Of a DNA stretch of 64,000 nucleotides, positions 11,240 to 28,665 are shown piece by piece. The DNA lies in contig ONEX01000018.1 in assembly GCA_900316955.1 (NCBI GenBank), positions 1 to 64,000 of the forward strand, written 5' to 3'. A model generated the notes under the pieces. The model had not been told where the DNA came from, did not search any database, and saw nothing but the letters and a program-made list of their open reading frames with translations. The stretch's first letter is position 1, and each line of letters opens with the position of its first letter. The DNA is from an uncultured Bacteroidales bacterium (GTDB lineage: Bacteria > Bacteroidota > Bacteroidia > Bacteroidales > UBA932). A program made the position numbers and the translations under genes.

Positions 11240-12090
11240 TCGAGTTCTCCGTCATCATCCCCTTGTACAACAAGGAAACCACCATCCTGAAGACCCTGGA
11301 TTCGGTGCTGGCGCAGACCTATCCCCACTTCGAGGTGGTCGTGGTCGACGACGGGTCCACCGATCGGAGCGCAGAACTCGTCACTTCGCTGGCCGATTCC
11401 AGGATCCGATACTTCAAGAAGGAGAACGGAGGGCCCAGTTCGGCCCGGAACCTGGGCGTAGAAAAGGCGGAAAAAGAGTGGCTCCTGTTTTTGGATGCCG
11501 ATGACCTTCTCCTCGGGAATGCGCTGGAAACCTTTGAGAAAGTGATTGCCCACACCGAGGGGGCCGGCATCTTTGCCGCCAATTTCTATTGGGTCAAGAA
11601 GCAGGCGAAATGGTTATACGCAAAGGACTACCCGGAAGGGGTCGTGCGCAACCCCTATAAAGACTGGTTCCTCCACCGGCTGATGCCCCGCGCCGGGGCG
11701 TGTGTCATCCAAAAAGGCATTGCGTCGGACTATCCTTACAAGGAATATCTCCGCCGCTCGGAGGATACCGACGTCATGTTCGACATGATGCGGAACCACC
11801 CTGTTTACCGGATTGCTGTTCCCGTCATGGAATACCGCCTGGATGATGCCACGGAGAGCAAGATCCGGAGAGGCATCGGCAAAGACTTCCAGGGGCATCT
11901 CTCTTTCGACCGCTGGAAACCCCTCTGGGAGCGGATCTGCCTCTATGAACTCTATGTGGAGGCGAAGAACAAATACCCGGACGAGGTGCACGGCGTCTAT
12001 CCGGACATGGGCAAACGGGTGTTCCTCAAGGCCGCCTACCATGCCGCCTTCCGATACCGGGCGTTCCTCCAAAAAAGACGCAAAAAATGA
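11236..12090 (+). CDS. Family 2 glycosyltransferase
   Basis: This 284-residue GT-A protein reads EFSVIIPLYNKETTI, VVVDDGSTD (about residues 34-42), GGPSSARNLG and the metal-binding FLDADDLL around residue 92. There is no C-terminal membrane segment. ATG 11236 overlaps the wzx stop; the frame is open far upstream but only as a shadow of wzx. The GT-D-like gene follows with a 4-base overlap. Substrates are unknown. Confidence 0.9.
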   Translation: MIEFSVIIPLYNKETTILKTLDSVLAQTYPHFEVVVVDDGSTDRSAELVTSLADSRIRYFKKENGGPSSARNLGVEKAEKEWLLFLDADDLLLGNALETFEKVIAHTEGAGIFAANFYWVKKQAKWLYAKDYPEGVVRNPYKDWFLHRLMPRAGACVIQKGIASDYPYKEYLRRSEDTDVMFDMMRNHPVYRIAVPVMEYRLDDATESKIRRGIGKDFQGHLSFDRWKPLWERICLYELYVEAKNKYPDEVHGVYPDMGKRVFLKAAYHAAFRYRAFLQKRRKK

Positions 12091-13100
12091 AAGCTTTCTA
12101 CGAATACAGTCCCGTCCAGGATTTCTGGCACAAATCCGTCTGCAAACTGAACGACCTCTATCTGAGGACGGTCGGCGACAAGCATCCGTATGTCCGGCCC
12201 ACCCGGACGGCCCAGGAATCCTCCGACAAGATCTACGACCTGCTCATGGCCGACAAGCCGTGCATGGTCGCCCGGTTCGGCGGGTCCGAACTCTATTGCA
12301 TCGCCAATTACCTGGGTGTCAGGCAAGGGCCCAGGAACCTGATTCCGTTCATCCGGACGGACGCGGAGCCCTGGTGGTGGATGAAGAAAAGGGTCACGGC
12401 CATGCAGGACCTGAGCGGATTCTTCCCGCTGACGGAAGAGGCCGTCGTCCGGTTCTGCGAGATGTCGCTGGAAGACACGGCGCAGGTGGACCTCCTCGCC
12501 AGCTGGATGGAGAAGGAATGGACGATGGAGCCTTACCTCGTCAGCCATGAGAAAATCTTCCTTCCTTACCTGGAGCCTTGGTATGCGGAGCGTCCATGGA
12601 CACGCGCCCTCGCCGGGAAGAAGGTCGTCGTGGTCAATTTCCTCGCGGACCTGATGGAAGAGCAGTACCGGGAGAACCGGACGAAACTCTTCCGGAACCC
12701 GGACATCCTCCCGCCGTTCGACCTCCGCGGGGTCAAGTCCGTCCTCACCTACACCGGCAGCGACGGCGGCTTCCAGTCCTGGTTCGACGCCCTGAAATGG
12801 ATGGAGGACGAGATTGACAAGGAAGACTACGACGTATGCATCATCGGCTGCGGGGCCTACGGCTTCTCGCTGGCCGCCCACGTGAAACGCTCCGGCAAGA
12901 AGGCCGTCCACATGGGCGGGGCCACCCAGCTCCTGTTCGGCATCAAGGGAAACCGCTGGGAAGACCCGATGTACGGCGTCAAGGAATGGGGCCTGCCCAA
13001 AGGCTTCTACACGGACATGTTCAACGAGTACTGGGCCAAGGCTGGCGCGAAGACGAAGCCGAAGAACGTGGACAAGATCGAGGGGGCTTGCTATTGGTAA
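12087..13100 (+). CDS. GT-D fold glycosyltransferase-like protein
   Basis: The 337-residue soluble protein carries MVARFGGSELYCI, with Arg63, Gly65 and Glu68 matching the RFGxGE signature of GT-D (DUF1792-type) glycosyltransferases. It also has a C-terminal CGAYGFSLAAHVKRSGKKAVHMGG segment resembling the nucleotide-sugar half of that fold. The family is known from streptococcal serine-rich-protein glycosylation, where it transfers glucose. It sits immediately upstream of the phosphonate genes. The family assignment is by motif recall and the substrate is unknown. Confidence 0.65.
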   Translation: MKAFYEYSPVQDFWHKSVCKLNDLYLRTVGDKHPYVRPTRTAQESSDKIYDLLMADKPCMVARFGGSELYCIANYLGVRQGPRNLIPFIRTDAEPWWWMKKRVTAMQDLSGFFPLTEEAVVRFCEMSLEDTAQVDLLASWMEKEWTMEPYLVSHEKIFLPYLEPWYAERPWTRALAGKKVVVVNFLADLMEEQYRENRTKLFRNPDILPPFDLRGVKSVLTYTGSDGGFQSWFDALKWMEDEIDKEDYDVCIIGCGAYGFSLAAHVKRSGKKAVHMGGATQLLFGIKGNRWEDPMYGVKEWGLPKGFYTDMFNEYWAKAGAKTKPKNVDKIEGACYW

Positions 13101-13101
13101 A

Positions 13102-15123
13102 ATGGATTCAAGCATGAAAGCACTTATTCTCAACTCCGGACTCGGACATCGCATGGGCGTCCTGACCAGCGAGCATCCGAAGTGCATGACCGAAATCTCG
13201 CACCGCAATACCATCCTCAGCCGCCAGCTGCGCCAATGCGTGGAATACGGAATCGAGGAGGTCGTGATGACCACGGGGTACTACGACAAGGTCCTGATCG
13301 ATTATTGCAACTTTCTCCACCTCCCGCTCAAGATCACGTTCGTCAACAACCCCCTCTACGACAAGACCAACTACATCTACAGCATCTACTGCGCAAAGGA
13401 TCATCTGAAGGACGGCGACATCATCCTGATGCATGGAGACCTGGTCTTCGAGAATCTGGTTTTCGAGGCCGTGGTCGACTCGCCCGACAGCTGCATGACC
13501 GTCAGCAGTACGCTGCCCCTGCCCGAGAAAGACTTCAAAGCCGTCATCAAAGACGGACGCATAGAGAAAGTCGGCATCGAGTTCTTCGAGAACGCGATGG
13601 CCGCCCAGCCCCTCTACAAGATCAAGAAAGAGGACTGGCTGATCTGGCTCTCCAACATCGAACGGTTCTGCGAGAACGACAATCGCAAGTGCTACGCCGA
13701 GAATGCGCTCAATGAAGTCTCCGGCCAATGCGCCATCAAGCCGCTGGATGTGAAGGACATGCTGTGCGCCGAGATCGACACGCCCGAGGATCTGGAGGTC
13801 GTTTCCGCGAAACTTCGCACCGTCAACGACCGCACCGTGTATATGTGTTTCTCCACCGAGTACATCCATTCCGGCCACATTGCCATTATCAAGCGAGCGA
13901 AACGCCTGGGGCGGTTGACCATCGGCGTACTCTCGGACCAGGCCGTCGCCAGTTTCCGCCGTTTTCCGCTGATGCCGTTCGAAGAGCGCAAGGCTTTGAT
14001 GGCCAGCATCGCCGGCGTGGAAAGGGTGGTCGAACAGTCTACGCTCAGCTATGCCGAGAATGTCCGCGCCTTGAAACCCGACTACGTGGTCCACGGAGAT
14101 GATTGGGTGAACGGCTTCCAGAGACCGATCCGGCAGGAAGTCCTGGATGTCCTCGCCGAATACGGCGGCCAGCTCGTCGAGTATCCCTATTCGTCCGACC
14201 CGAGATACAAGGAGATCGACAAGATGCACCGGGCGGAACTGGCCATGCCGGACCTTCGCCGTGGCCGTTTGCGCAAGTTGCTGGATATGAAAGGCCTGGT
14301 GACCGCCATCGAAGCCCATAGCGGCATTACGGGACTCATCGCCGAAAAGACTACGGTCCTTCAGGACGGAAAGACCTATCAGTTCGACGCCATGTGGATC
14401 TCTTCCCTCTGCGATTCTACGGCGAAGGGCAAGCCGGACATCGAACTGGTGGACATGACAAGCCGTTTCCGCACGATCGATGACATCATGGAGGTGACTA
14501 CCAAGCCCATCATCTTCGACGGGGATACGGGAGGGCTGACCGAGCATTTCATATACACCGTCCGTTCGCTGGAACGGATGGGAGTTTCGATGGTCATCAT
14601 CGAAGACAAGACGGGTCTTAAGAAGAACTCGCTCTTCGGGACCGAAGTCGAACAGACCCAGGACAGTATCGAAAACTTCTGCGCCAAGATCGCTGCCGGC
14701 AAGAAAGCCCAGAAGACCCACGACTTCATGATCTGCGCCCGCATCGAGAGCCTGATCCTGGAGCGGGGTATGGAAGATGCCCTGACCCGCGCCTTCGCTT
14801 TTGTGGGCGCCGGCGCCGATGCGGTCATGATCCACTCCAGAAAGAAGGATCCTGCGGAAATCTTCGAATTCGTTGCCAAGTTCCGGGAGAAAGATTCCGT
14901 GACCCCCATCGTGGTCGTCCCGACATCTTTCAACACCGTCACGGAAGATGAGTTCAAGGCTCGCGGCGTCAATGTGGTCATCTACGCGAACCAGCTCACC
15001 CGCACCGGCTTCCCGGCCATGCAGAACGCCGCCCGGACCATCCTGGAGCACCACCGCGCCAAGGAATGTGACGACATGTGCATGTCCATCAAAGACATCA
15101 TTACTCTGATCCCGGAGGAGTAG
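13102..15123 (+). CDS. Three-domain fusion: NTP-transferase / cytidylyltransferase-like / phosphoenolpyruvate mutase
   Basis: Three enzymes are read in the 673 residues. Residues 1 to about 235 are a sugar-phosphate-type nucleotidyltransferase (NSGLGHRMG at 11-19, then EHPKCM) resembling the phosphonate cytidylyltransferase PntC/LicC group. Residues about 245-375 are a glycerol-3-phosphate-cytidylyltransferase-like domain with HSGH at 256-259 and GDDW at 332-335. Residues about 388-673 are PEP mutase with the diagnostic EDKx5NS at 501-510. PEP mutase makes phosphonopyruvate, the C-P bond-forming step. One N-terminal domain probably activates the final phosphonate as a CMP ester. An ATG at 13114 is a possible alternative start. 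Confidence 0.9.
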   Translation: MDSSMKALILNSGLGHRMGVLTSEHPKCMTEISHRNTILSRQLRQCVEYGIEEVVMTTGYYDKVLIDYCNFLHLPLKITFVNNPLYDKTNYIYSIYCAKDHLKDGDIILMHGDLVFENLVFEAVVDSPDSCMTVSSTLPLPEKDFKAVIKDGRIEKVGIEFFENAMAAQPLYKIKKEDWLIWLSNIERFCENDNRKCYAENALNEVSGQCAIKPLDVKDMLCAEIDTPEDLEVVSAKLRTVNDRTVYMCFSTEYIHSGHIAIIKRAKRLGRLTIGVLSDQAVASFRRFPLMPFEERKALMASIAGVERVVEQSTLSYAENVRALKPDYVVHGDDWVNGFQRPIRQEVLDVLAEYGGQLVEYPYSSDPRYKEIDKMHRAELAMPDLRRGRLRKLLDMKGLVTAIEAHSGITGLIAEKTTVLQDGKTYQFDAMWISSLCDSTAKGKPDIELVDMTSRFRTIDDIMEVTTKPIIFDGDTGGLTEHFIYTVRSLERMGVSMVIIEDKTGLKKNSLFGTEVEQTQDSIENFCAKIAAGKKAQKTHDFMICARIESLILERGMEDALTRAFAFVGAGADAVMIHSRKKDPAEIFEFVAKFREKDSVTPIVVVPTSFNTVTEDEFKARGVNVVIYANQLTRTGFPAMQNAARTILEHHRAKECDDMCMSIKDIITLIPEE

Positions 15124-15126
15124 GCC

Positions 15127-16254
15127 ATGATACGTCCGCAATATTTCATCGACACTCTCGCGGCACACGGCATCGACTTCTTTGCCGGGGTGCCGGACAG
15201 CCTGCTCAAGAATATCTGTGCCTATATCTCGGATCACATCGACGGGAAGCACAACATCATCACCGCCAACGAAGGCGGGGCCATCGGCCTGGCAACCGGA
15301 TACCATCTCGCCACCGGCAAGATCGGCTGCGTGTACATGCAAAACTCAGGAGAAGGCAATATCATCAATCCCCTCGCTTCGCTCACGGACAAGGAAGTCT
15401 ACAACGTCCCCGTGCTCCTGCTGATCGGCTGGCGCGGCCGGCCTGGCGTCCATGATGAACCTCAGCACGTGAAGCAAGGCAAGGTGACGCTGGAGCTTCT
15501 TGATACGATGGGCGTCAAGCATGCCATCCTGGACAAGGACGAGGATGTGGCCGGCGAACAAATCGCCAGAGCCGTATCCCATATGAAGGCCACGAACGAG
15601 ACCTTCGCCCTGGTCATCGAAAAAGACACCTTTGACTCGTATACGCTCCAGCATGTCCGCTCCAACACTTTGGCGCTCAGCCGCGAAGATGCCATCCGGA
15701 CCGTAGCCGCCCGCCTGGATGCCAAAGACGTGATCGTTTCCACGACGGGGATGATCAGCCGGGAGCTTTTCGAGTATCGGACATCCCAAGGCGAGAGCCA
15801 TGAGCGCGATTTCCTGACCGTCGGCTCGATGGGACACGCTTCCCAGATTGCCCTGGGCATCGCCCTGGAAAAACCCGAACGCCGCATCTGGTGCTTCGAC
15901 GGGGACGGCGCCGTCATCATGCATATGGGCGGGATGGCCATCGTTGCGGAGAAAGCGCCGAAGAACTATATCCACGTCGTCTTCAACAACGGAGCGCATG
16001 ACTCCGTGGGCGGACAGCCTACCGTAGGCCTGGACATCGACCTTTGCGCCATCGCAAAAGCCGTCGGATACAAGGAGTCTTTCGACACGGACTGCAAGGA
16101 AGGTCTCTCTGCTATCCTGGACAAAGTGAAAAGTCTGGACGGTCCTATCCTCGTCCAGGTCCGGGTCAAGAAAGGAAACCGGAAGGACCTCGGCCGTCCG
16201 ACGACCACTCCGATTCAGAACAAGGAGGCCTTGATGGCCTTCCTCAAAGATTAG
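15127..16254 (+). CDS. aepY: Phosphonopyruvate decarboxylase (ThDP-dependent)
   Basis: The 375-residue protein has the phosphonopyruvate-decarboxylase start (FFAGVPDSLLKN), TANEGGAIGLATGYH with the conserved Glu, and the ThDP/Mg motif GDG at 259-261 paired with NN at 287-288. These place it with Ppd/AepY rather than acetolactate synthase. It irreversibly converts phosphonopyruvate to phosphonoacetaldehyde, pulling the unfavourable PEP mutase reaction forward. It starts 3 bases after the mutase gene and is followed 3 bases later by the reductase. Confidence 0.93.
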   Translation: MIRPQYFIDTLAAHGIDFFAGVPDSLLKNICAYISDHIDGKHNIITANEGGAIGLATGYHLATGKIGCVYMQNSGEGNIINPLASLTDKEVYNVPVLLLIGWRGRPGVHDEPQHVKQGKVTLELLDTMGVKHAILDKDEDVAGEQIARAVSHMKATNETFALVIEKDTFDSYTLQHVRSNTLALSREDAIRTVAARLDAKDVIVSTTGMISRELFEYRTSQGESHERDFLTVGSMGHASQIALGIALEKPERRIWCFDGDGAVIMHMGGMAIVAEKAPKNYIHVVFNNGAHDSVGGQPTVGLDIDLCAIAKAVGYKESFDTDCKEGLSAILDKVKSLDGPILVQVRVKKGNRKDLGRPTTTPIQNKEALMAFLKD

Positions 16255-16257
16255 GTT

Positions 16258-17382
16258 ATGCAGAGAATCATCCACGGCATCGCCAGTCTCCCGGATCTGC
16301 TGAAAGGCGCCGGTTGCAAGCGCCTTTTCCTGGTGATCGACGCATCGTACCCTTTCCTCAGTATCAAGGATGCTATCGAGTCTTTGCCGGTACCCGAGAA
16401 GGTCAAGTTTTCGGAGTTCACCCCCAATCCCCAGTATGAACAGGTTTGCCGGGGCATCGACCTCTTTGAATCGTCGGGCTGCGATTCCATCCTCGCCGTA
16501 GGCGGAGGAAGCGCCATCGACGTGGCCAAATGCATCAAACTGGCGGTTCTGGCGAAAAAAGGCGACCAAGCCATCATCCCCCCGCTGGTTTCCCAACGGC
16601 TGCCGATTGAAGGTGAAAGGATTCCCTTCATTGCCATTCCAACGACGGCCGGCACCGGCAGTGAGTCCACGCATAACGCCGTGATGTACTTCGAAGGGGC
16701 CAAGCAGACCGTCACCAACGACGGTATCCTCCCGGACTTTGCCATCCTGGAGCCGTCGGTCTTGAAAACGCTCCCCATCTACCAGAAGAAAAGCACGATG
16801 ATGGACGCCCTCTGCCAGGGTATCGAATCCTGGTGGTCGGTGAACTCGACGGACGAATCCAAGGAATACTCCAGGAACGCGGTGGAACTCGTCATGGCCA
16901 ACTGGGAGGCTTATATTTTCAAGAACGATGACGAGGCCGCCACGCAGATCATGCTGGCCGCCAATTACAGCGGACGCGCCATCAACCTTGCCCAGACGAC
17001 GGCCGCGCACGCGATGAGCTACAAGATTACATCGATTTTCGGATTGCCGCATGGGCATGCGGTGGCCGTGTGCCTGCCGGAGATTTGGGATTATATGCTT
17101 GTCAATCCTGACAAATGTATCGACATTCGCGGGAAAGAGTATTTGTTTGGAATCTTCCAATCCATCGCGACTGCCATGGGGGCAAAGAACGTCGCGGAGG
17201 CTATCGCATCTTTCAGGGAGATGATGCGTTCTCTGGATCTGGGCAATCCCCGGCGAAATCTCTGCACGGAAGACTCCTTTGACTCTCTCTGCCGTTCCGT
17301 CAATCCCGTACGGCTCAAGAACAATCCGGTCGGTCTGGATTCCAAAGCGATCTCTTCGTTATACACTTCAATCTTGAAATGA
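16258..17382 (+). CDS. Iron-containing (group III) alcohol dehydrogenase, probable phosphonoacetaldehyde reductase
   Basis: This 374-residue protein has the NAD(P)-binding GGGSAIDVAK at residues 82-91, PTTAGTGSE, and metal-site residues Asp183, His251 and His265. The fourth usual His ligand is Gln187 (MDALCQG). Next to PEP mutase and phosphonopyruvate decarboxylase, the expected reaction is reduction of phosphonoacetaldehyde to 2-hydroxyethylphosphonate, as with PhpC-type enzymes. No aminoethylphosphonate transaminase is encoded nearby, so the reductive branch is likely the only outlet. The function is inferred from family plus context. Confidence 0.85.
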   Translation: MQRIIHGIASLPDLLKGAGCKRLFLVIDASYPFLSIKDAIESLPVPEKVKFSEFTPNPQYEQVCRGIDLFESSGCDSILAVGGGSAIDVAKCIKLAVLAKKGDQAIIPPLVSQRLPIEGERIPFIAIPTTAGTGSESTHNAVMYFEGAKQTVTNDGILPDFAILEPSVLKTLPIYQKKSTMMDALCQGIESWWSVNSTDESKEYSRNAVELVMANWEAYIFKNDDEAATQIMLAANYSGRAINLAQTTAAHAMSYKITSIFGLPHGHAVAVCLPEIWDYMLVNPDKCIDIRGKEYLFGIFQSIATAMGAKNVAEAIASFREMMRSLDLGNPRRNLCTEDSFDSLCRSVNPVRLKNNPVGLDSKAISSLYTSILK

Positions 17383-18305
17383 GGCATTCATTCTTTACTC
17401 CGGCCCTTCTGTTCGCCGTCATCTCCATCCTGCTCTCCTGCACGCCTGCTAGCGGAGCGTCTCCAGATGAAACGAAAGCATCCCCGACGCATATCATTAT
17501 CCTGGGCTTCGACGGATGGGGCGCTAGTTCCTACGAGTTGGCAGAAATGCCTTTCTTGAAGAAGATGGTATCCGAAAGCGCATGGACTTTGAAAAAACGT
17601 TCCATCCTGCCTTCATCCAGCGCCTGCAATTGGGCTTCGATGTTCAAAGGCGCAGGCCCGGAGGCGCACGGATACATTGACTGGGATACCCGGAAGCCCG
17701 CTTTTGACATCACGTTCGCCGATGCAAAAGGACAGTTCCCGTCTTTCTTTTCCATCTTCCGGGAAGCTTTCCCGGATTACGAGATGGGATACCTCTATCA
17801 ATGGGAAGGGATGATGTATCTGTTTGACATGGCCGATTTCAACTACACGAAAAAGTTCGAGATTTCTCCTGCCGGGAGCACGGACCTGATGGATGCCGCT
17901 ATCTCCTACATCGAAGACAAGAAACCGGCCGTCGCAGCGCTCATTTGGGACTATCCGGACAAGATCGGCCATACGACAGGATGGTACACCAGTGATTACA
18001 TGAAGGAGCTGACGCACATTGACAGCATCATCGAGTCCATTGTCACCGCCTGTGAGAAGGCAGGAATCATGGATAGCACCCTGTTCGTGGTCACTTCGGA
18101 CCACGGAGGACATAACAAAACGCATGGCCAGGCCCTGATGTCCGATCTGGAGGCTCCTTTCATCATGTTCGGTCCCGGAGTACAGCCCGGTATGATTACA
18201 GACCCCATGATGCAATATGACGTTGCCGCCGTTTTAGCGGACTACATGCATCTGGACATTCCCAAGGGCTGGCGTGGGCGTTCTCCATCCGGCATTTTCA
18301 AATAG
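17379..18305 (+). CDS. Alkaline-phosphatase-superfamily phosphodiesterase-like lipoprotein
   Basis: The 308-residue protein has a lipoprotein signal (LLSC, Cys21). An alkaline-phosphatase fold follows: FDGWG with Asp45, the SSSACNWASM nucleophile region, WDYPDKIGH (Asp191, Asp194, His198) and TSDHGGH (Asp241, His242). This fits type I phosphodiesterase/nucleotide pyrophosphatase-like enzymes with two metals. It is exported to the periplasm or surface although its neighbours are cytosolic phosphonate enzymes. It could hydrolyse or transfer a phosphonate or phosphate ester on the finished glycan. It overlaps the reductase gene by 4 bases. The exact substrate is unknown. Confidence 0.8.
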   Translation: MRHSFFTPALLFAVISILLSCTPASGASPDETKASPTHIIILGFDGWGASSYELAEMPFLKKMVSESAWTLKKRSILPSSSACNWASMFKGAGPEAHGYIDWDTRKPAFDITFADAKGQFPSFFSIFREAFPDYEMGYLYQWEGMMYLFDMADFNYTKKFEISPAGSTDLMDAAISYIEDKKPAVAALIWDYPDKIGHTTGWYTSDYMKELTHIDSIIESIVTACEKAGIMDSTLFVVTSDHGGHNKTHGQALMSDLEAPFIMFGPGVQPGMITDPMMQYDVAAVLADYMHLDIPKGWRGRSPSGIFK

Positions 18306-18335
18306 TTCTTGTTTCCGCATAGTGTTTCGATAAGG

Positions 18336-19658
18336 ATGAGCCATCTTAAAGAATCGATCAAACGGGTGTTACCGGAAGAGGCGCTGAGGCCCTATGCCTG
18401 GCTTCTTCAGCACTACAGGGCAATTGTCGACAAAAGAGAATGGCAGATAGTCCTGCATCGAACTCGTCACGAACACATGGTAGCCCTGTCACGATTGAAG
18501 GGGAAATCGCCCATAAAATGCGTCTTTTTTGCCCTCTTCGAATCCGTTTGGAAATATGATCGCGTCTATCGGCTCATGGAGCGGAGCGATCGATTCGATC
18601 CCATTGTTTTAGTCTGTCCCATCGTCAATTATGGAAAAGAGAACATGATTGACAACATGCGCCGATGCTTCGCTTCCCTTCAGAAAAAAGGGTACAACGT
18701 GATATGTTCCTATGATGAGAAGACAGACCGCTATCTGGATGTCCGACAGGAACTGAATCCCGACATAATCTTTTACACGAGCCCCTACAAAGGTCTGATC
18801 GACGACCGATATTATATCGATCAGTTCGAAGATGTTCTCACAGTCTATGTCCCCTATTTCTTTTCAAGCAACAGAGACTACCAGTTGAGTTTCAACAAAC
18901 CTCTGCACAACTTGGTTTGGAGAAGGTATCTGGAATCGGACGTGCACCGCAAAATCGCTCGGAAGTGTTCGTACAACAAAAAGAACATCGTGGTATCAGG
19001 CTTTCCAGGGATTGACACGTTCTTGGATCCCAACTATCGCCCAAACGACGTATGGAAAGACAAATCGGCCCGCAAGAAAAGAATCATCTGGGCGCCTCAT
19101 CATACAATCGAACCTGTCGGCATCATTTATTACTCCTGCTTCCTGAAATACCAGGACTTCATGCTTTCAATGGCGCAAAAGTACTCGGGGTCCATCGAAA
19201 TGATCTTTAAGCCGCATCCCTTGCTCAGGAATAAATTGAATGCGCTCTGGGGCGAAGACAAGACCAACGAATACTACGCCCGATGGAGACAAGGAGAAAA
19301 CACCGACTATAATGATGGAGAATACGTCGATCTCTTTCTGACAAGTGATGCCATGATTCACGACAGCGCCTCTTTCACTGTCGAGTATCTTTATGTAAAC
19401 AAACCAGTTCTTCGAACACTCAATGGAGAGGATTTGACGGAGCAGTTCAATCAATTTGGACTGGCTTGCCTGAAGAACCACTATCTTGCCTATGACGAGA
19501 CGGAGATTGAAGCGTTCATCCAGAACGTCATCAGCGGTCAAGACCCGATGAAAGAATCTCGAACTTCGTTTCTCAAGGGGACACTGATACCGCATGGAAG
19601 CCCCTCCGAATTCATTATTGACGACATCCTGGACAGCATCGACAGCCAGCGCAACTAA
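18336..19658 (+). CDS. CDP-glycerol glycerophosphotransferase-like protein (TagB/TagF family)
   Basis: The 440-residue protein has the C-terminal half of the CDP-glycerol:polyglycerophosphate glycerophosphotransferase family: IIWAPHHTIEP, a FKPHPLLR motif, then LFLTSDAMIHDSASFTVEYLYVNKPVL. These enzymes use CDP-activated alcohols to build phosphodiesters. Beside a phosphonate cytidylyltransferase it may use a CMP-phosphonate donor instead. I chose ATG 18336; a TTG at 18309 is in frame but weaker. Its base composition is visibly more AT-rich than the flanking genes, and the 30-base gap upstream is larger than usual in the locus. Confidence 0.78.
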   Translation: MSHLKESIKRVLPEEALRPYAWLLQHYRAIVDKREWQIVLHRTRHEHMVALSRLKGKSPIKCVFFALFESVWKYDRVYRLMERSDRFDPIVLVCPIVNYGKENMIDNMRRCFASLQKKGYNVICSYDEKTDRYLDVRQELNPDIIFYTSPYKGLIDDRYYIDQFEDVLTVYVPYFFSSNRDYQLSFNKPLHNLVWRRYLESDVHRKIARKCSYNKKNIVVSGFPGIDTFLDPNYRPNDVWKDKSARKKRIIWAPHHTIEPVGIIYYSCFLKYQDFMLSMAQKYSGSIEMIFKPHPLLRNKLNALWGEDKTNEYYARWRQGENTDYNDGEYVDLFLTSDAMIHDSASFTVEYLYVNKPVLRTLNGEDLTEQFNQFGLACLKNHYLAYDETEIEAFIQNVISGQDPMKESRTSFLKGTLIPHGSPSEFIIDDILDSIDSQRN

Positions 19659-19682: not shown

Positions 19683-20090
19683 ATGAAAATAGATTCCAGA
19701 ATCATCCAATTACCCAGATTCCTTGACGAAAGAGGGAATCTCTCCGTCATTGAGGAAGATAAGGACATTCCCTTCAAAATCCAGCGCAGCCACTGGATCT
19801 ATGACGTACCGGGCGGTGAAAAACGAGGAGGGCATGCCTACAAATCCACACAGCAGTTCATCATTGCGCTGTCAGGGAGCTTTGACATTCTGCTGGACAA
19901 TGGAGAGAATCAGACTTGTTACCATCTGAACCGATCCTATTACGGTCTTTATGTCCCGGAGATGATCTGGTGCGAGATGGATAATTTTTCGACGAACTCC
20001 CTCGCGCTCATCGTTTCTTCAACAGAATACGATGAACAAGACTATATTCGTGATTACAATCAATTTAAACAGCTATCCAGTGCACAATAA
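19683..20090 (+). CDS. FdtA/QdtA-like sugar ketoisomerase, copy 1 (variant active site)
   Basis: This 135-residue single-domain cupin matches dTDP-4-oxo-6-deoxyhexose 3,4-ketoisomerases (WxcM-like family): DERGNLSVIEE, WIYDVPGGEKRGGHAYKS and LSGSFDILLDNG. The usual pair of active-site histidines in RGxHAHK is here HAY, so the second His is replaced by Tyr. It is followed by a second, canonical copy, with which it overlaps. It could be a specificity variant, a partner subunit or an inactive paralogue. The region is AT-richer than most of the locus. Confidence 0.82.
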   Translation: MKIDSRIIQLPRFLDERGNLSVIEEDKDIPFKIQRSHWIYDVPGGEKRGGHAYKSTQQFIIALSGSFDILLDNGENQTCYHLNRSYYGLYVPEMIWCEMDNFSTNSLALIVSSTEYDEQDYIRDYNQFKQLSSAQ

Positions 20091-20505
20091 CAGCGTATTT
20101 GACTGCTCCATCCTGGAGCTTGACAAACACCATGCAGGGAAAGGGAATCTCTCGGTGGTAGAGAACCTGAAGGACGTGCCATTTAAAGTCAGGCGGCTTT
20201 ACTACCTGTACGACGTTCCCGGCGGCGAAAGCCGGGGAGCCCATGCCCACAAGAAACTGTATCAGTTTCTGGTGGCCGCCAGCGGCAGTTTCTCCGTCAC
20301 GCTGGACGACGGAAGAGTCAAAAGGACCTTTCTCCTGAACAGGCCTTACCAGGGATTGCTGATTGTACCGGGCATCTGGCGCACTCTGGAAGATTTCTCG
20401 GCCGGTTCCGTCTGCCTGTGCCTGGCGTCGGAATTATATGATCCGGAGGACTACATCCGCGATTACGACACATTCCTTGCCTATCGAAAAAGCCTGCAGG
20501 TATGA
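20080..20505 (+). CDS. FdtA/QdtA-like dTDP-4-oxo-6-deoxyhexose 3,4-ketoisomerase, copy 2
   Basis: This cupin isomerase has [30 protein letters not shown] with both canonical histidines, and a [11 protein letters not shown] core. It should convert dTDP-4-oxo-6-deoxyglucose to the 3-oxo sugar that the aminotransferase at 20957 aminates. I chose the in-frame GTG at 20080 (141 residues), which gives an 11-base overlap like other junctions here. ATG 20032 would add 16 unconserved residues and overlap copy 1 by 59 bases. Confidence 0.85.
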
Positions 20506-26129: not shown

Positions 26130-26852
26130 ATGAAAGTATTTGCTCTCCTTACCGCCGGCGGTGTCGGAAACCGCATGGGACAGGACATACCGAAACAGTT
26201 CATGACGGTGGACAACGTCCCGGTCATCATCTATACGCTGCAGGCTTTCCAGAATCACCCCGCCGTGGACGCGATCTGCGTACCCTGCCTTTCCGGATGG
26301 GAAGTCGTACTCCAGTCCTATGCGAACCAGTACGGCATCACCAAACTCCAGTGGATCTGTCAGGGTGGCAGTTCCAACCAGGAATCCATCTTCAACGGAC
26401 TGATGGCCCTGAAAGAGGCCGGCTGCGACGACGAGGACATCGTCCTCATCCATGACGGTGTCCGTCCGCTGGTTTCCGAGGAGATCATCACCAACAACAT
26501 CGAGACCTGCAAGAAGTTCCGGTATGCCGTCACCGGCCTGGTGTGCAAGGAAGCCATCATGCGGCTGGGGGACGGGGTCGTCCAGCGGCTGGACATTCCC
26601 CGGGAGCAGCTCATCCGGACCCAGACGCCCCATACCTATCACCTGGGGGACCTGATCCAGGCGCATCGGGACGCCCAGGCGAAAGGTGTCAGGAATACCG
26701 TCGCCTCCTGCACGCTCCTGGCGGAACTGGGGGTGGACGACCAGCACTTGGTGATGGGCTCCGAGAAAAACGGCCTGAAACTGACGAAGCCCGAAGATGT
26801 CGAGCTGTTCCTGGCGTTGAAACAAACCGACGGCCTGTCCTGGATGAAATGA
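26130..26852 (+). CDS. IspD/TarI-like cytidylyltransferase
   Basis: This 240-residue protein has the IspD/TarI nucleotide-binding start LLTAGGVGNRMGQDIPKQF, then IHDGVRPLVS and TQTPHTY. Context separates the two functions: it sits with an SDR and a LicD phosphotransferase inside a glycan locus, so it more likely makes a CDP-alditol or CDP-sugar (ribitol-5-phosphate type) than the isoprenoid intermediate. The product would be the donor for LicD at 27868. Its stop overlaps the SDR start (ATGATGA). Confidence 0.85.
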   Translation: MKVFALLTAGGVGNRMGQDIPKQFMTVDNVPVIIYTLQAFQNHPAVDAICVPCLSGWEVVLQSYANQYGITKLQWICQGGSSNQESIFNGLMALKEAGCDDEDIVLIHDGVRPLVSEEIITNNIETCKKFRYAVTGLVCKEAIMRLGDGVVQRLDIPREQLIRTQTPHTYHLGDLIQAHRDAQAKGVRNTVASCTLLAELGVDDQHLVMGSEKNGLKLTKPEDVELFLALKQTDGLSWMK

Positions 26853-27871
26853 TGACGCCCTACGAAATGGATCTCCGCACCGCCGCCGGCTGTCCCCTTC
26901 CCTGGGAGCAGCTGGACGGTTGCCGGATCCTGGTCACCGGCGCGACGGGCCTGATCGGCGGTTGCCTGGTGGACCTGCTGATGGAAGTTTGCCGACAACG
27001 GGATCTCCGGCTGGACATCTATGCCATGGGGCGGAACGCGGAACGCGCGAAAGCCAGGTTCCGCACCTGCTGGGACCATCCCGCTTTTCATTTCGTAGAG
27101 CACGATGTCACCCGGCCGCTGGCGGGCGACACACCTTTCCATTTCATCATCCATGCAGCCAGCGGCGCCAGCCCGCAATTGTTCCGGGAGAGGCCGGTAG
27201 AGGTGATGAAAGCGAACCTGGACGGCGTCACGAACTTGATCGGATACGGGAAAAACCACGGGATGAAGCGCTTCCTCTATGTCTCTTCCGGAGAAGTGTA
27301 CGGAAAGCAGCAGCGCCCGGCGCTGGGGGAAGCCGACTACGGCTACGTGGACCTGCTGGATCCCCGCTCCTGCTACCCGTCCTCCAAGCGGGCAGCCGAG
27401 ACCCTGACCGCCTGCTTCGCCAGCGAATACGGGGTCGACACCGTCATCGCGCGGCCCTGCCACACCTTCGGACCGTACTTTACGGACACGGACCTGCGGG
27501 CCTACGCCCAGTTCATCCGCAACGTCGAAGCCGGCGAGGATATCGTCCTCAAGGGAGACGGCTCCCAATACCGGTCCTGGTGCTACGTCGTGGACTGCGC
27601 CTCCGCCATCTGCCACATCCTCTTGAAGGGAGAGAAAGCGCAGGCTTACAACATCGCGGACGCCCGCTGCGAGGCCAGCCTGAAAGAAGTGGCCTCCACA
27701 ATCGCAGACCTGGGCCGATGCGGCCTTACCGTCGGCGCGCCTGACCCGAATGCCGGCGAGCGGGTCATCTTCGACACCGCCCGGCTGGCATCCCTGGGCT
27801 GGGAAACGTCGGGAACGCTGAAGGACAAGCTCCGCCATACCCTGGAAACACGTCAACAAGCCGGGAAATGA
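26849..27871 (+). CDS. Extended short-chain dehydrogenase / NAD-dependent epimerase-dehydratase
   Basis: The 340-residue protein has the Rossmann motif VTGATGLIGG at residues 29-38, SSGEVYG as the active-site Ser strand, and the catalytic pair Tyr176-Lys180 (YPSSK). Its place between a TarI-like enzyme and LicD parallels known systems in which an SDR pairs with the cytidylyltransferase (for example Bcs1/Acs1-type ribulose-5-phosphate reduction). However, the extended-SDR form looks more like a nucleotide-sugar epimerase or reductase. The substrate is therefore left open. Confidence 0.82.
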   Translation: MMTPYEMDLRTAAGCPLPWEQLDGCRILVTGATGLIGGCLVDLLMEVCRQRDLRLDIYAMGRNAERAKARFRTCWDHPAFHFVEHDVTRPLAGDTPFHFIIHAASGASPQLFRERPVEVMKANLDGVTNLIGYGKNHGMKRFLYVSSGEVYGKQQRPALGEADYGYVDLLDPRSCYPSSKRAAETLTACFASEYGVDTVIARPCHTFGPYFTDTDLRAYAQFIRNVEAGEDIVLKGDGSQYRSWCYVVDCASAICHILLKGEKAQAYNIADARCEASLKEVASTIADLGRCGLTVGAPDPNAGERVIFDTARLASLGWETSGTLKDKLRHTLETRQQAGK

Positions 27872-28665
27872 GAAAGGTCGGACTGGAAGAGATGAAGCGG
27901 ATCCAGCTGGAGATCCTGGACGACGTGGACCGTTTCTGCAGGGAAACGGGGCTGCGGTATTCCCTCTGCGGCGGAACCCTCCTCGGGGCGGTCCGGCACA
28001 AGGGTTACATCCCCTGGGATGACGATATCGACATCCTGATGCCCCGGGAGGACTATGAGACCTTCATCCGGACGTACCGGTCGGACAAGAATACCGTCCT
28101 CGACCTCCGGAAAGAGGGGACGACGGTGGAGGTTGTCGTCAAGGTCAGCCGGAACGGTACCTGGATGACGGACCAGACGCTGGGCCGGACCCTCTGGGGA
28201 ATCAACATCGACATCTTCCCCGTGGACGGGATTCCGGACGATTTCGGGAAGCACTGCGACACGATCCTGGCCCTTCGCGACAAGCTGAGCCGGATCTGTC
28301 CCTTCTACCGGGTCGTCGGGAGCCGGAAATGGCGCTGGTTCCTCAAATATTGCTTGAAGCGGCTGGTCTATTTCTATCCGGGGACCTTCCTCGGATTGAA
28401 ACGCAGGATCGACACCCTGGCCTCCTCCTATGCGCTCTCCGAATGCAACCTGGCGGGAGCCGTACTGGGCAGCTATGGCCGGAGGGAAGCCGTCCGGAAA
28501 GAAGTATTCCTGGAATACGGGGACATCCCCTTCGAAGACCGTTCGTACCGGGCGGTCCTCGACTATGACCAGTATCTGAAGTCCCTGTACGGGGACTATA
28601 TGCAGCCGCCTCCCAAGGAGAAGCAGGTCAGTCATCACCTTTACGACGCATACATCGAAGAATGA
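27868..28665 (+). CDS. LicD-family phosphotransferase
   Basis: The 265-residue protein has the LicD core: YSLCGGTLLGAVRHKG followed by PWDDDIDILMPREDY, whose acidic cluster binds the metal and diphosphate of a CDP donor. LicD enzymes transfer phosphocholine, phosphoribitol or related groups from CDP donors to sugars. With the adjacent TarI-like enzyme and SDR, the likely donor is a CDP-alditol or CDP-sugar. It overlaps both neighbours by 4 bases. Confidence 0.9.
   Translation: MRKVGLEEMKRIQLEILDDVDRFCRETGLRYSLCGGTLLGAVRHKGYIPWDDDIDILMPREDYETFIRTYRSDKNTVLDLRKEGTTVEVVVKVSRNGTWMTDQTLGRTLWGINIDIFPVDGIPDDFGKHCDTILALRDKLSRICPFYRVVGSRKWRWFLKYCLKRLVYFYPGTFLGLKRRIDTLASSYALSECNLAGAVLGSYGRREAVRKEVFLEYGDIPFEDRSYRAVLDYDQYLKSLYGDYMQPPPKEKQVSHHLYDAYIEE

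What the first reader, a model, noticed from the sequence alone, without database searches (positions are those of the whole stretch)
13102..19658. Phosphonoglycan module predicted to attach 2-hydroxyethylphosphonate
PEP mutase, phosphonopyruvate decarboxylase and a group III alcohol dehydrogenase are consecutive with 3-base gaps, and no aminoethylphosphonate transaminase is present. Established pathway knowledge then gives 2-hydroxyethylphosphonate as the product. A cytidylyltransferase in the mutase protein and a CDP-glycerol-phosphotransferase-like enzyme supply a plausible CMP-activation and transfer route into the surface polysaccharide. Known Bacteroidales phosphonoglycans are described mainly with aminoethylphosphonate.
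Basis: partly seen in the sequence, partly recalled or inferred. Interest (0 to 1): 0.85.

Follow-up and report, generated by a model that had tools for sequence, protein, structure and literature searches.

The report
Hydroxyethylphosphonate surface-sugar decoration module
This gut-type bacterium carries a compact gene set that most likely makes 2-hydroxyethylphosphonate and attaches it to its surface sugar coat; closely related gene sets occur in many rumen and gut bacteria, which suggests a decoration so far overlooked there.

Summary
PEP mutase, phosphonopyruvate decarboxylase and an iron-type alcohol dehydrogenase (ADH) are consecutive, and no aminoethylphosphonate (AEP) transaminase was found in the assembled genome. 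The mutase is a rare three-domain protein: a LicC/PntC-like cytidylyltransferase, a Fom1-like cytidylyltransferase (Fom1's makes CMP-HEP) and the mutase. Comparison supports hydroxyethylphosphonate (HEP): of 80 related triple-fusion loci, 75 carry the ADH within 7 kb and none a clear transaminase; a serine of the Fom1-like domain is kept in Fom1 and 102 of 102 ADH-type rows but in 0 of 6 transaminase-type rows; the N-terminal domain has His in 81 of 81 where AEP-specific PntC has a substrate-contacting Glu; the ADH has the metal site of a sulfoacetaldehyde reductase. The attachment step is open: a PF04464 enzyme sits in the module, but LicD is the commonest neighbour family in relatives and the window also has a LicD. 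Among 19 Bacteroidales mutase loci sampled, 16 are ADH-type and 1 transaminase-type, so the HEP type looks like the rule. New variant of a known kind; the glycan itself is unproven.

The parts
13102..15123 (+). three-domain fusion: N-terminal LicC/PntC-like cytidylyltransferase (about 13114-13821), Fom1-like cytidylyltransferase (about 13834-14196), PEP mutase (about 14269-15117)
   Evidence: PF12804, PF01467, PF13714 over cut-off; TIGR02320 400 bits; PDB hits 5x3d and 1jyk/6pd1
15127..16254 (+). phosphonopyruvate decarboxylase
   Evidence: TIGR03297 519 bits, cut-off 313
16258..17382 (+). iron-type alcohol dehydrogenase, predicted phosphonoacetaldehyde reductase
   Evidence: PF00465/PF25137; best PDB hit 6jko, a sulfoacetaldehyde reductase; metal site D183 Q187 H251 H265
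17379..18305 (+). type I phosphodiesterase / alkaline-phosphatase superfamily protein with a lipoprotein-like signal; predicted extracytoplasmic phosphonate-ester hydrolase or transferase
   Evidence: PF01663 76 bits, PF00884 45 bits; ENPP hits
18336..19658 (+). PF04464 glycerophosphotransferase-like enzyme, candidate CMP-HEP:glycan transferase (ORF from TTG 18309)
   Evidence: PF04464 33 bits; 39% identical gene directly upstream of a ppm-ppd-adh module in L138; GT-B-like matches of a low-confidence model, TagF at rank 50
12087..13100 (+). GT-D-like glycosyltransferase directly upstream
   Evidence: PF22882 23 bits, below its cut-off of 27
26130..26852 (+). IspD-like cytidylyltransferase of the same locus
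   Evidence: PF01128 120 bits
26543..27871 (+). NAD-dependent epimerase (domain from about 26927)
   Evidence: PF01370 157 bits
27868..28665 (+). LicD-family phosphotransferase, second candidate for attachment of HEP
   Evidence: PF04991 143 bits
33117..33878 (+). polysaccharide export protein; with the surrounding glycosyltransferases marks a surface-polysaccharide locus
   Evidence: PF02563 63 bits

Best explanation
The module makes 2-hydroxyethylphosphonate and loads it onto a surface polysaccharide. The mutase domain turns PEP into phosphonopyruvate; the decarboxylase gives phosphonoacetaldehyde; the ADH reduces it to HEP; the Fom1-like domain, fused to the mutase, joins HEP to CMP. A CMP-dependent transferase of the same locus (the PF04464 enzyme, or the LicD at 27868) puts the HEP phosphonyl group on a sugar hydroxyl before export, and the lipoprotein phosphodiesterase may trim or rearrange the ester outside. 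Shown here: gene content, domain make-up, lack of a recognisable transaminase in the assembled genome, linkage and residue signatures. Inferred: every catalytic step, the transferase, the role of the N-terminal cytidylyltransferase and the glycan target.
For: ADH within 7 kb on the same strand in 75 of 80 triple-fusion loci and 26 of 35 double-fusion loci; transaminase in 0 of 80 and 6 of 35 (100-bit threshold). 2 of 50 triple-fusion genomes hold a transaminase over the TIGR03301 cut-off, with no mutase found in the 16-18 kb fetched around either. Fom1-like domain: E 5e-39 to the Fom1 structure 5x3d; Ser251 in 102 of 102 ADH-type rows and in Fom1, Gly or Thr in 6 of 6 transaminase-type rows. 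ADH: three metal residues and Thr247 are those of the sulfoacetaldehyde reductase BkTauF in 101 of 101 rows; the fourth, atypical Gln is Gln in 76 of 101 (window included) and His in 25 of 101. Fom1's domain makes CMP-HEP (as stated in PMC6697681). N-terminal domain His111 in 81 of 81 where 6 of 6 PntC rows have Glu. Polysaccharide-locus context.
Against: No chemistry. The ADH is far below the cut-off of the named phosphonate ADH family TIGR03405 (143 against 424 bits) and has Ile where BkTauF has the substrate-site Phe252. The Fom1-like domain also occurs in 6 transaminase-type loci, so its presence alone does not mark HEP. The 6 comparison rows come from two origins at most, five of them one clade and the sixth (L134) on a long branch of unsure place, so the signature partly reflects kinship. 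The second amine contact of PntC, Glu196, is kept in the N-terminal domain. Five triple-fusion loci show no ADH nearby, one of them (L089) cut by the contig end. 8 of 50 genomes hold an aminotransferase with about 130-159 bits on TIGR03301 (cut-off 361), beside the mutase in L039. The window's phosphodiesterase has no phmmer counterpart in the flanks of L038-L135. Steps after HEP (for example oxidation or methylation) were not searched for.
Confidence: 0.72

Rival explanations
1. AEP is the true product: an unlinked or non-canonical aminotransferase converts phosphonoacetaldehyde and the ADH does something else or drains excess aldehyde.
For: AEP is the phosphonate described for Bacteroides fragilis capsule (PMC6697681). 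8 of 50 triple-fusion genomes hold a class V aminotransferase with about 130-159 bits on TIGR03301 (cut-off 361); one lies beside the mutase in L039, the places of the other seven relative to the mutase were not worked out.
Against: No AEP transaminase in the window's genome; 48 of 50 relatives lack one over the cut-off; ADH linkage across two phyla and two gene orders; signature residues.
Confidence: 0.1
2. HEP is made but goes to a lipid or to a further modified small phosphonate, not to the polysaccharide.
For: HEP is an intermediate of fosfomycin and methylphosphonate pathways (passages of PMC6697681, PMC8931226 and PMC9381506); 60KD_IMP and phosphodiesterase fusions accompany related clusters.
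Against: The module sits among glycosyltransferase, export and sugar-nucleotide genes; LicD and PF04464 are adjacent in relatives. No gene of later steps was recognised among the 24 window genes scanned with Pfam.
Confidence: 0.12
3. A variant within the best explanation: the PF04464 enzyme is not the HEP transferase; the LicD at 27868-28665 is, and PF04464 and phosphodiesterase serve another polymer step.
For: LicD matches 27 of 105 immediate neighbours of triple-fusion modules, PF04464 7 of 105; LicD within 7 kb in at least 35 of 80 triple-fusion loci; 22 of 50 such genomes lack PF04464 over the cut-off.
Against: In the window LicD is 8 kb away and next to an IspD/epimerase pair that could supply its own CDP-donor; a PF04464-like gene follows the ADH in 8 of 35 double-fusion loci, with weaker matches in two more (L163, L165), and a 39% identical copy of the window's gene abuts the module in L138.
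Confidence: 0.4

Closest known systems
Fom1 of fosfomycin biosynthesis (cytidylyltransferase-PEP mutase, makes CMP-HEP)
   Same: Same two fused domains; the window's middle domain keeps HxGH and the Ser251/Ser284 positions; decarboxylase and aldehyde reductase complete the route to HEP.
   Different: A third, N-terminal cytidylyltransferase is added; the genes sit in a polysaccharide locus, not an antibiotic cluster.
Triple-fusion mutases PF12804+PF01467+PF13714 counted by Rice et al. 2019 (42 of 1485 mutases)
   Same: Identical domain set.
   Different: That paper gives a count; in the sections and passages I read no function or ADH link is assigned to this class.
PntC pathway for AEP tailoring (Tde1415, Ari1348)
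   Same: CMP activation of a C2 phosphonate, LicC-like domain with conserved metal residues, LicD-type neighbours (in relatives and in the window's locus).
   Different: ADH instead of transaminase; His in place of the AEP-contacting Glu104.
Phosphonoglycans of Glycomyces and Stackebrandtia (HEP on glycan is recalled; only the reference title was seen)
   Same: Predicted HEP on a glycan.
   Different: Actinobacteria; gene sets not compared here.
ppm-ppd-ADH cluster of the gut archaeon Methanocorpusculum vombati (PMC10035134, passages read)
   Same: Mutase, decarboxylase and a predicted phosphonoacetaldehyde reductase in one cluster.
   Different: Authors suggest an antibiotic; domain fusions and glycan context not described in the passages read.

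Membership tests
PEP mutase (Ppm) | EDKxxxxxNS motif and TIGR02320 score over cut-off | tested here: met
   motif in window and 79 of 80 triple-fusion relatives; 400 bits, cut-off 320
Triple-fusion Ppm class of Rice 2019 | PF12804 + PF01467 + PF13714 in one protein | tested here: met
   all three over gathering cut-off
Fom1-type CMP-HEP cytidylyltransferase | HxGH motif and homology to Fom1 CyTase domain | tested here: met
   H256, H259; E 5e-39 to 5x3d
Fom1-type CMP-HEP cytidylyltransferase | makes CMP-HEP from CTP and HEP | not testable with these tools
   enzyme assay needed
PntC (CMP-AEP cytidylyltransferase) | LicC-like domain with conserved metal residues | tested here: met
   D113, E224, D226 in 81 of 81; fold matches 6pd2, 1jyk
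PntC (CMP-AEP cytidylyltransferase) | Glu104 placed to contact the AEP amine | tested here: not met
   His111 in 81 of 81; Glu in 6 of 6 PntC rows
PntC (CMP-AEP cytidylyltransferase) | Glu196, the second residue near the AEP amine | tested here: met
   Glu200 in 81 of 81
Phosphonopyruvate decarboxylase | TIGR03297 over cut-off | tested here: met
   519 bits, cut-off 313
Phosphonoacetaldehyde reductase (Fe-ADH type) | Fe-ADH family with complete metal site | tested here: met
   D183, Q187, H251, H265; same site as BkTauF, where Gln binds Zn
Phosphonoacetaldehyde reductase (Fe-ADH type) | reduces phosphonoacetaldehyde | not testable with these tools
   enzyme assay needed
NCBIfam TIGR03405 Phn_Fe-ADH | score over curated cut-off | tested here: not met
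   142.7 bits, cut-off 423.7
AEP biosynthesis | AEP transaminase present | tested here: not met
   none among 6 PF00266 hits of the genome
CDP-glycerol glycerophosphotransferase family PF04464 | score over gathering cut-off | tested here: met
   33.1 bits, cut-off 22.1, only positions 145-290 of 367
HEP phosphonoglycan | HEP ester found in purified glycan | not testable with these tools
   31P NMR and mass spectrometry needed

The most novel reading that the evidence does not exclude
HEP, not AEP, is the usual phosphonate of Bacteroidales and rumen/gut Clostridia surface glycans, and the triple-fusion enzyme carries a previously undescribed cytidylyltransferase: a LicC/PntC relative re-specified for a hydroxyl rather than an amine substrate, working beside the Fom1-like domain so that one polypeptide starts the C-P bond and activates the product, possibly with two different CMP-donors.
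Probability: 0.35. Interest if true: 0.78.

Novelty: new variant of a known kind. Interest (0 to 1): 0.56.

Why it matters
HEP esters on polysaccharides are known from marine dissolved matter (PMC9381506, passage) and, by recall, actinobacteria. If gut and rumen Bacteroidales and Clostridia widely make them, host-associated surface chemistry contains a common phosphonate that seems not to have been looked for there, which could affect immune recognition, phage adsorption and phosphorus flow. The residue signatures give a simple sequence test for HEP-type against AEP-type mutases, and the triple fusion is an assayable enzyme with two unassigned cytidylyltransferase specificities.

Tried and rejected
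AEP route: rejected as most likely because no transaminase was found in the genome. PF01467 fusion as a HEP marker by itself: rejected, since 6 of 35 double-fusion loci carry a transaminase. PF04464 as a fixed partner of the triple fusion: rejected, 22 of 50 genomes lack it over the cut-off. Window phosphodiesterase as a conserved part of the triple-fusion module: phmmer found no counterpart at E 1e-3 among the genes called in L038-L135. LicD tree to decide whether the window's LicD belongs with mutase-adjacent or IspD-adjacent ones: unresolved. Model of the PF04464 protein: low confidence (pLDDT 64, pTM 0.54); the matches are mostly GT-B-type UDP-GlcNAc 2-epimerases, TagF at rank 50, so only the overall fold is supported. 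Literature: no paper on HEP in gut or rumen glycans was seen in the listings (8 of 9 listed; 3 of 3; 15 of 15; 20 of 132; 10 of 10; 5 of 517,536; 40 of 87); two primary papers on phosphonoglycans were not held. Scripts failed part-way and were run again in mended form.

In one search L039 was counted as ADH plus transaminase at a 60-bit threshold; one search used 100 bits because that gene is a distant paralogue. L157, whose transaminase is cut by the contig end, stands under neither; L089 and L133 are cut by contig ends too, and 2 of the 9 rows without the Fom1-like domain lack the mutase motif. In some searches, 50 of the 80 genome-contig loci were searched. The tree holds 45 rows: the double-fusion rows long enough, the window and a random part of the triple fusions.
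Full report
Observation. The window lies in a 3.13 Mb genome of 38 contigs, 98.46% complete, with one match to the PEP mutase family TIGR02320. The module runs mutase 13102-15123, decarboxylase 15127-16254, ADH 16258-17382, phosphodiesterase 17379-18305, PF04464 enzyme 18309-19658, all on the + strand, with spacings of 3, 3, -4 and 3 bases as listed. Two starts may be later: 13114, where the relatives begin, and 18336, an in-frame ATG. Families: PEP mutase TIGR02320 400 bits (cut-off 320), phosphonopyruvate decarboxylase TIGR03297 519 bits (cut-off 313), Fe-ADH PF00465, PF01663 phosphodiesterase and PF04464.

The mutase is a triple fusion. PF12804 (residues 7-116), PF01467 (255-347) and PF13714 (390-648) all pass their cut-offs. 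The middle domain matches the solved Fom1 cytidylyltransferase domain 5x3d at 5e-39 over 121 residues; the N-terminal domain matches LicC 1jyk and PntC 6pd1 by sequence, and its model (pLDDT 71.5) matches inositol-phosphate cytidylyltransferases, PntC and LicC best. Rice et al. 2019 (PMC6697681; abstract, sections 6-8 and passages read) counted 42 such triple fusions among 1485 mutases, state that the Fom1 domain makes CMP-HEP, and show that two PntC enzymes prefer AEP over phosphocholine.

No transaminase. The 6 PF00266 matches of the genome were identified as other enzymes. A transaminase of an unrelated fold, or one lying in the missing part of the assembly, was not excluded.

Relatives. 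One scan of genome contigs gave 385 relatives, of which the best 80 were kept: best-segment identity 74-88% over nearly the whole fusion, by their record titles Bacteroidales and Clostridia mostly from rumen and gut. Further mutase loci came from samples of 393 genomes of the order (19 over the cut-off), 395 of the phylum (9), 92 of one family (10) and 391 of another class (14); these sets overlap. Their regions were fetched, with two matches below the cut-off (G762, G442). In 124 loci: triple fusions 75 with ADH, 0 with transaminase, 5 with neither (L077, L089, L094, L108, L114); double fusions (PF01467-mutase) 26 ADH, 6 transaminase, 3 neither; mutase-like proteins without the Fom1-like domain 0 ADH, 3 transaminase, 6 neither. 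In the order sample 16 of 19 loci are ADH-type counting the window, 1 of 19 transaminase-type, 2 of 19 undecided. Gene order is ppm-ppd-adh in 37 and ppm-adh-ppd in 36 triple-fusion loci where all three genes were found on one strand; in the listing the first is the order of the Bacteroidales loci and the second that of the Clostridia. Of 50 triple-fusion genomes 2 hold a transaminase over the TIGR03301 cut-off and 8 a paralogue of about 130-159 bits; around the two, no mutase was found in the stretches fetched.

Residue tests. Middle domain: window Ser251 is Ser in 76 of 76 triple-ADH rows (window included), 26 of 26 double-ADH rows and Fom1, but Gly or Thr in 6 of 6 transaminase-type rows; among 8 rows with neither partner it is Ser in 6. 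Ser284 is Ser in 73 of 76 and 25 of 26 (Gly in the rest) and in Fom1, but Lys or Asn in 6 of 6. The tree of 45 rows needs two changes between ADH and transaminase types; five of the six transaminase rows are one clade and the sixth, L134, is on a long branch whose place is unsure, so the comparison rests on two origins at most. L134 has also lost the second His of HxGH, and its cluster has a separate PntC-transaminase fusion. N-terminal domain: metal residues Asp113, Glu224 and Asp226 are invariant in 81 of 81 rows; His111 is invariant in 81 of 81 where 6 of 6 PntC rows, Tde1415 included, have Glu. In Tde1415 that Glu104 is placed to bond the AEP amine (PMC6697681 section 8). The other amine contact, Glu196, is kept (Glu200 in 81 of 81), a result that does not separate the two. 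Of 295 genomes of the order, 37 have a match to this domain; of nine relatives aligned, eight have Asp or Glu at position 111 and one Asn, and three of those scanned with Pfam are fusions to a class I/II aminotransferase-fold enzyme while others are stand-alone by length.

ADH. The best solved relative is 6jko, labelled methanol dehydrogenase in the PDB table; the paper on Bifidobacterium kashiwanohense TauF (PMC6616044, abstract and passages read; the entry code occurs in its text) describes a sulfoacetaldehyde reductase with Zn on Asp192, an atypical Gln196, His261 and His275. The window has D183, Q187, H251, H265. Among 101 ADH rows (window included) the Gln is Gln in 76 and His in 25, the other three are invariant; Thr257 is kept, Phe265 is Tyr and Phe252 is Ile in 101 of 101. 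Sulfoacetaldehyde is the sulfur analogue of phosphonoacetaldehyde, so the match fits the proposed reaction. The score on the named family TIGR03405 is far below its cut-off.

Transfer step. PF04464 next to HEP-type modules recurs: in eight double-fusion Bacteroidales loci a PF04464-like gene follows the ADH (L119-L124, L126, L129), six of these continuing into a gene of 966-1017 residues similar to L119's 60KD_IMP protein and a seventh, L120, into one cut by the contig end (the two genes of L119 were typed by Pfam, the others by similarity to them); weaker matches follow the ADH in L163 and L165; in Clostridia 60KD_IMP and PF04464-like parts are fused in one protein near the triple fusion (L086, L101, L103, L104, L111, L113; Pfam on L101, the rest by similarity); and in L138 a gene 39% identical to the window's abuts ppm-ppd-adh. 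Yet among 105 immediate same-strand neighbours of ADH-bearing triple-fusion modules LicD matches 27 and PF04464 7, and LicD lies within 7 kb in at least 35 of 80 triple loci, adjacent in 24. The window has LicD 27868-28665 beside IspD 26130-26852 and an epimerase. I keep both candidates open.

Phosphodiesterase. 17379-18305 has a signal with LLSC, which fits the recalled lipobox, the ENPP-like FDG, PDKIGH and SDHG stretches, and a serine where ENPP has the threonine recalled as the nucleophile. A place outside the cytoplasm and action on the phosphonate ester are inferences.

Setting. Around the module are glycosyltransferases, a flippase-like protein by eye, FdtA/aminotransferase/acetyltransferase genes of an amino-sugar route, UDP-galactopyranose mutase by eye, and polysaccharide export, which fits a surface polysaccharide locus.

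Known or new. HEP on polysaccharide is known in marine dissolved matter (PMC9381506, passages). A ppm-ppd-reductase cluster was noted in a gut archaeon and read as possible antibiotic synthesis (PMC10035134, passages). I saw no report of HEP on gut or rumen glycans in the listings, some of which show only a part of the papers found; subscription papers are largely outside that library.

Verdict.

Noticed in passing
L119:11452-15733 and equivalents in L120, L122-L124, L126, L129: Double-fusion HEP-type clusters run on into a PF04464-like gene and a roughly 1000-residue protein that in L119 joins a 60KD_IMP (YidC-like) domain to a weak phosphodiesterase match (below its cut-off): a possible membrane phosphonyltransferase (L120's copy is cut by the contig end).
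   Followed up: partly
L101:5771-7678, L086, L103, L104, L111, L113: Clostridial fusions of a 60KD_IMP domain with a PF04464-like region near the triple-fusion mutase.
   Followed up: partly
window 26130-28665: IspD-like cytidylyltransferase, NAD-dependent epimerase and LicD in a row: a second CDP-donor pathway in the same polysaccharide locus.
   Followed up: partly
L077, L094, L108, L114: Triple-fusion mutases without decarboxylase or ADH in the held flanks; L077 also lacks the mutase motif EDKxxxxxNS.
   Followed up: no
L134:7614-8915: Fom1-like domain of a transaminase-type mutase has lost the second histidine of HxGH while a separate PntC-transaminase fusion is present: likely decay of the fused domain.
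   Followed up: partly
L039:6113-7165 and 7 other genomes: Class V aminotransferases scoring about 130-159 bits on TIGR03301 (cut-off 361), one beside a triple-fusion mutase; function unknown.
   Followed up: partly
window 19683-20505: Two FdtA-like (PF05523) genes in tandem, overlapping by 59 bases as listed.
   Followed up: no
L054 and L056: One cultured strain, Xylanibacter ruminicola D31d, holds two triple-fusion HEP-type modules on two contigs.
   Followed up: no
L038-L117: In the Clostridia loci the fused mutase is 74-79% identical to the window's while decarboxylase and ADH are only about 41-55%, and the order of the two differs from Bacteroidales: the mutase fusion is unusually conserved or moved on its own.
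   Followed up: no
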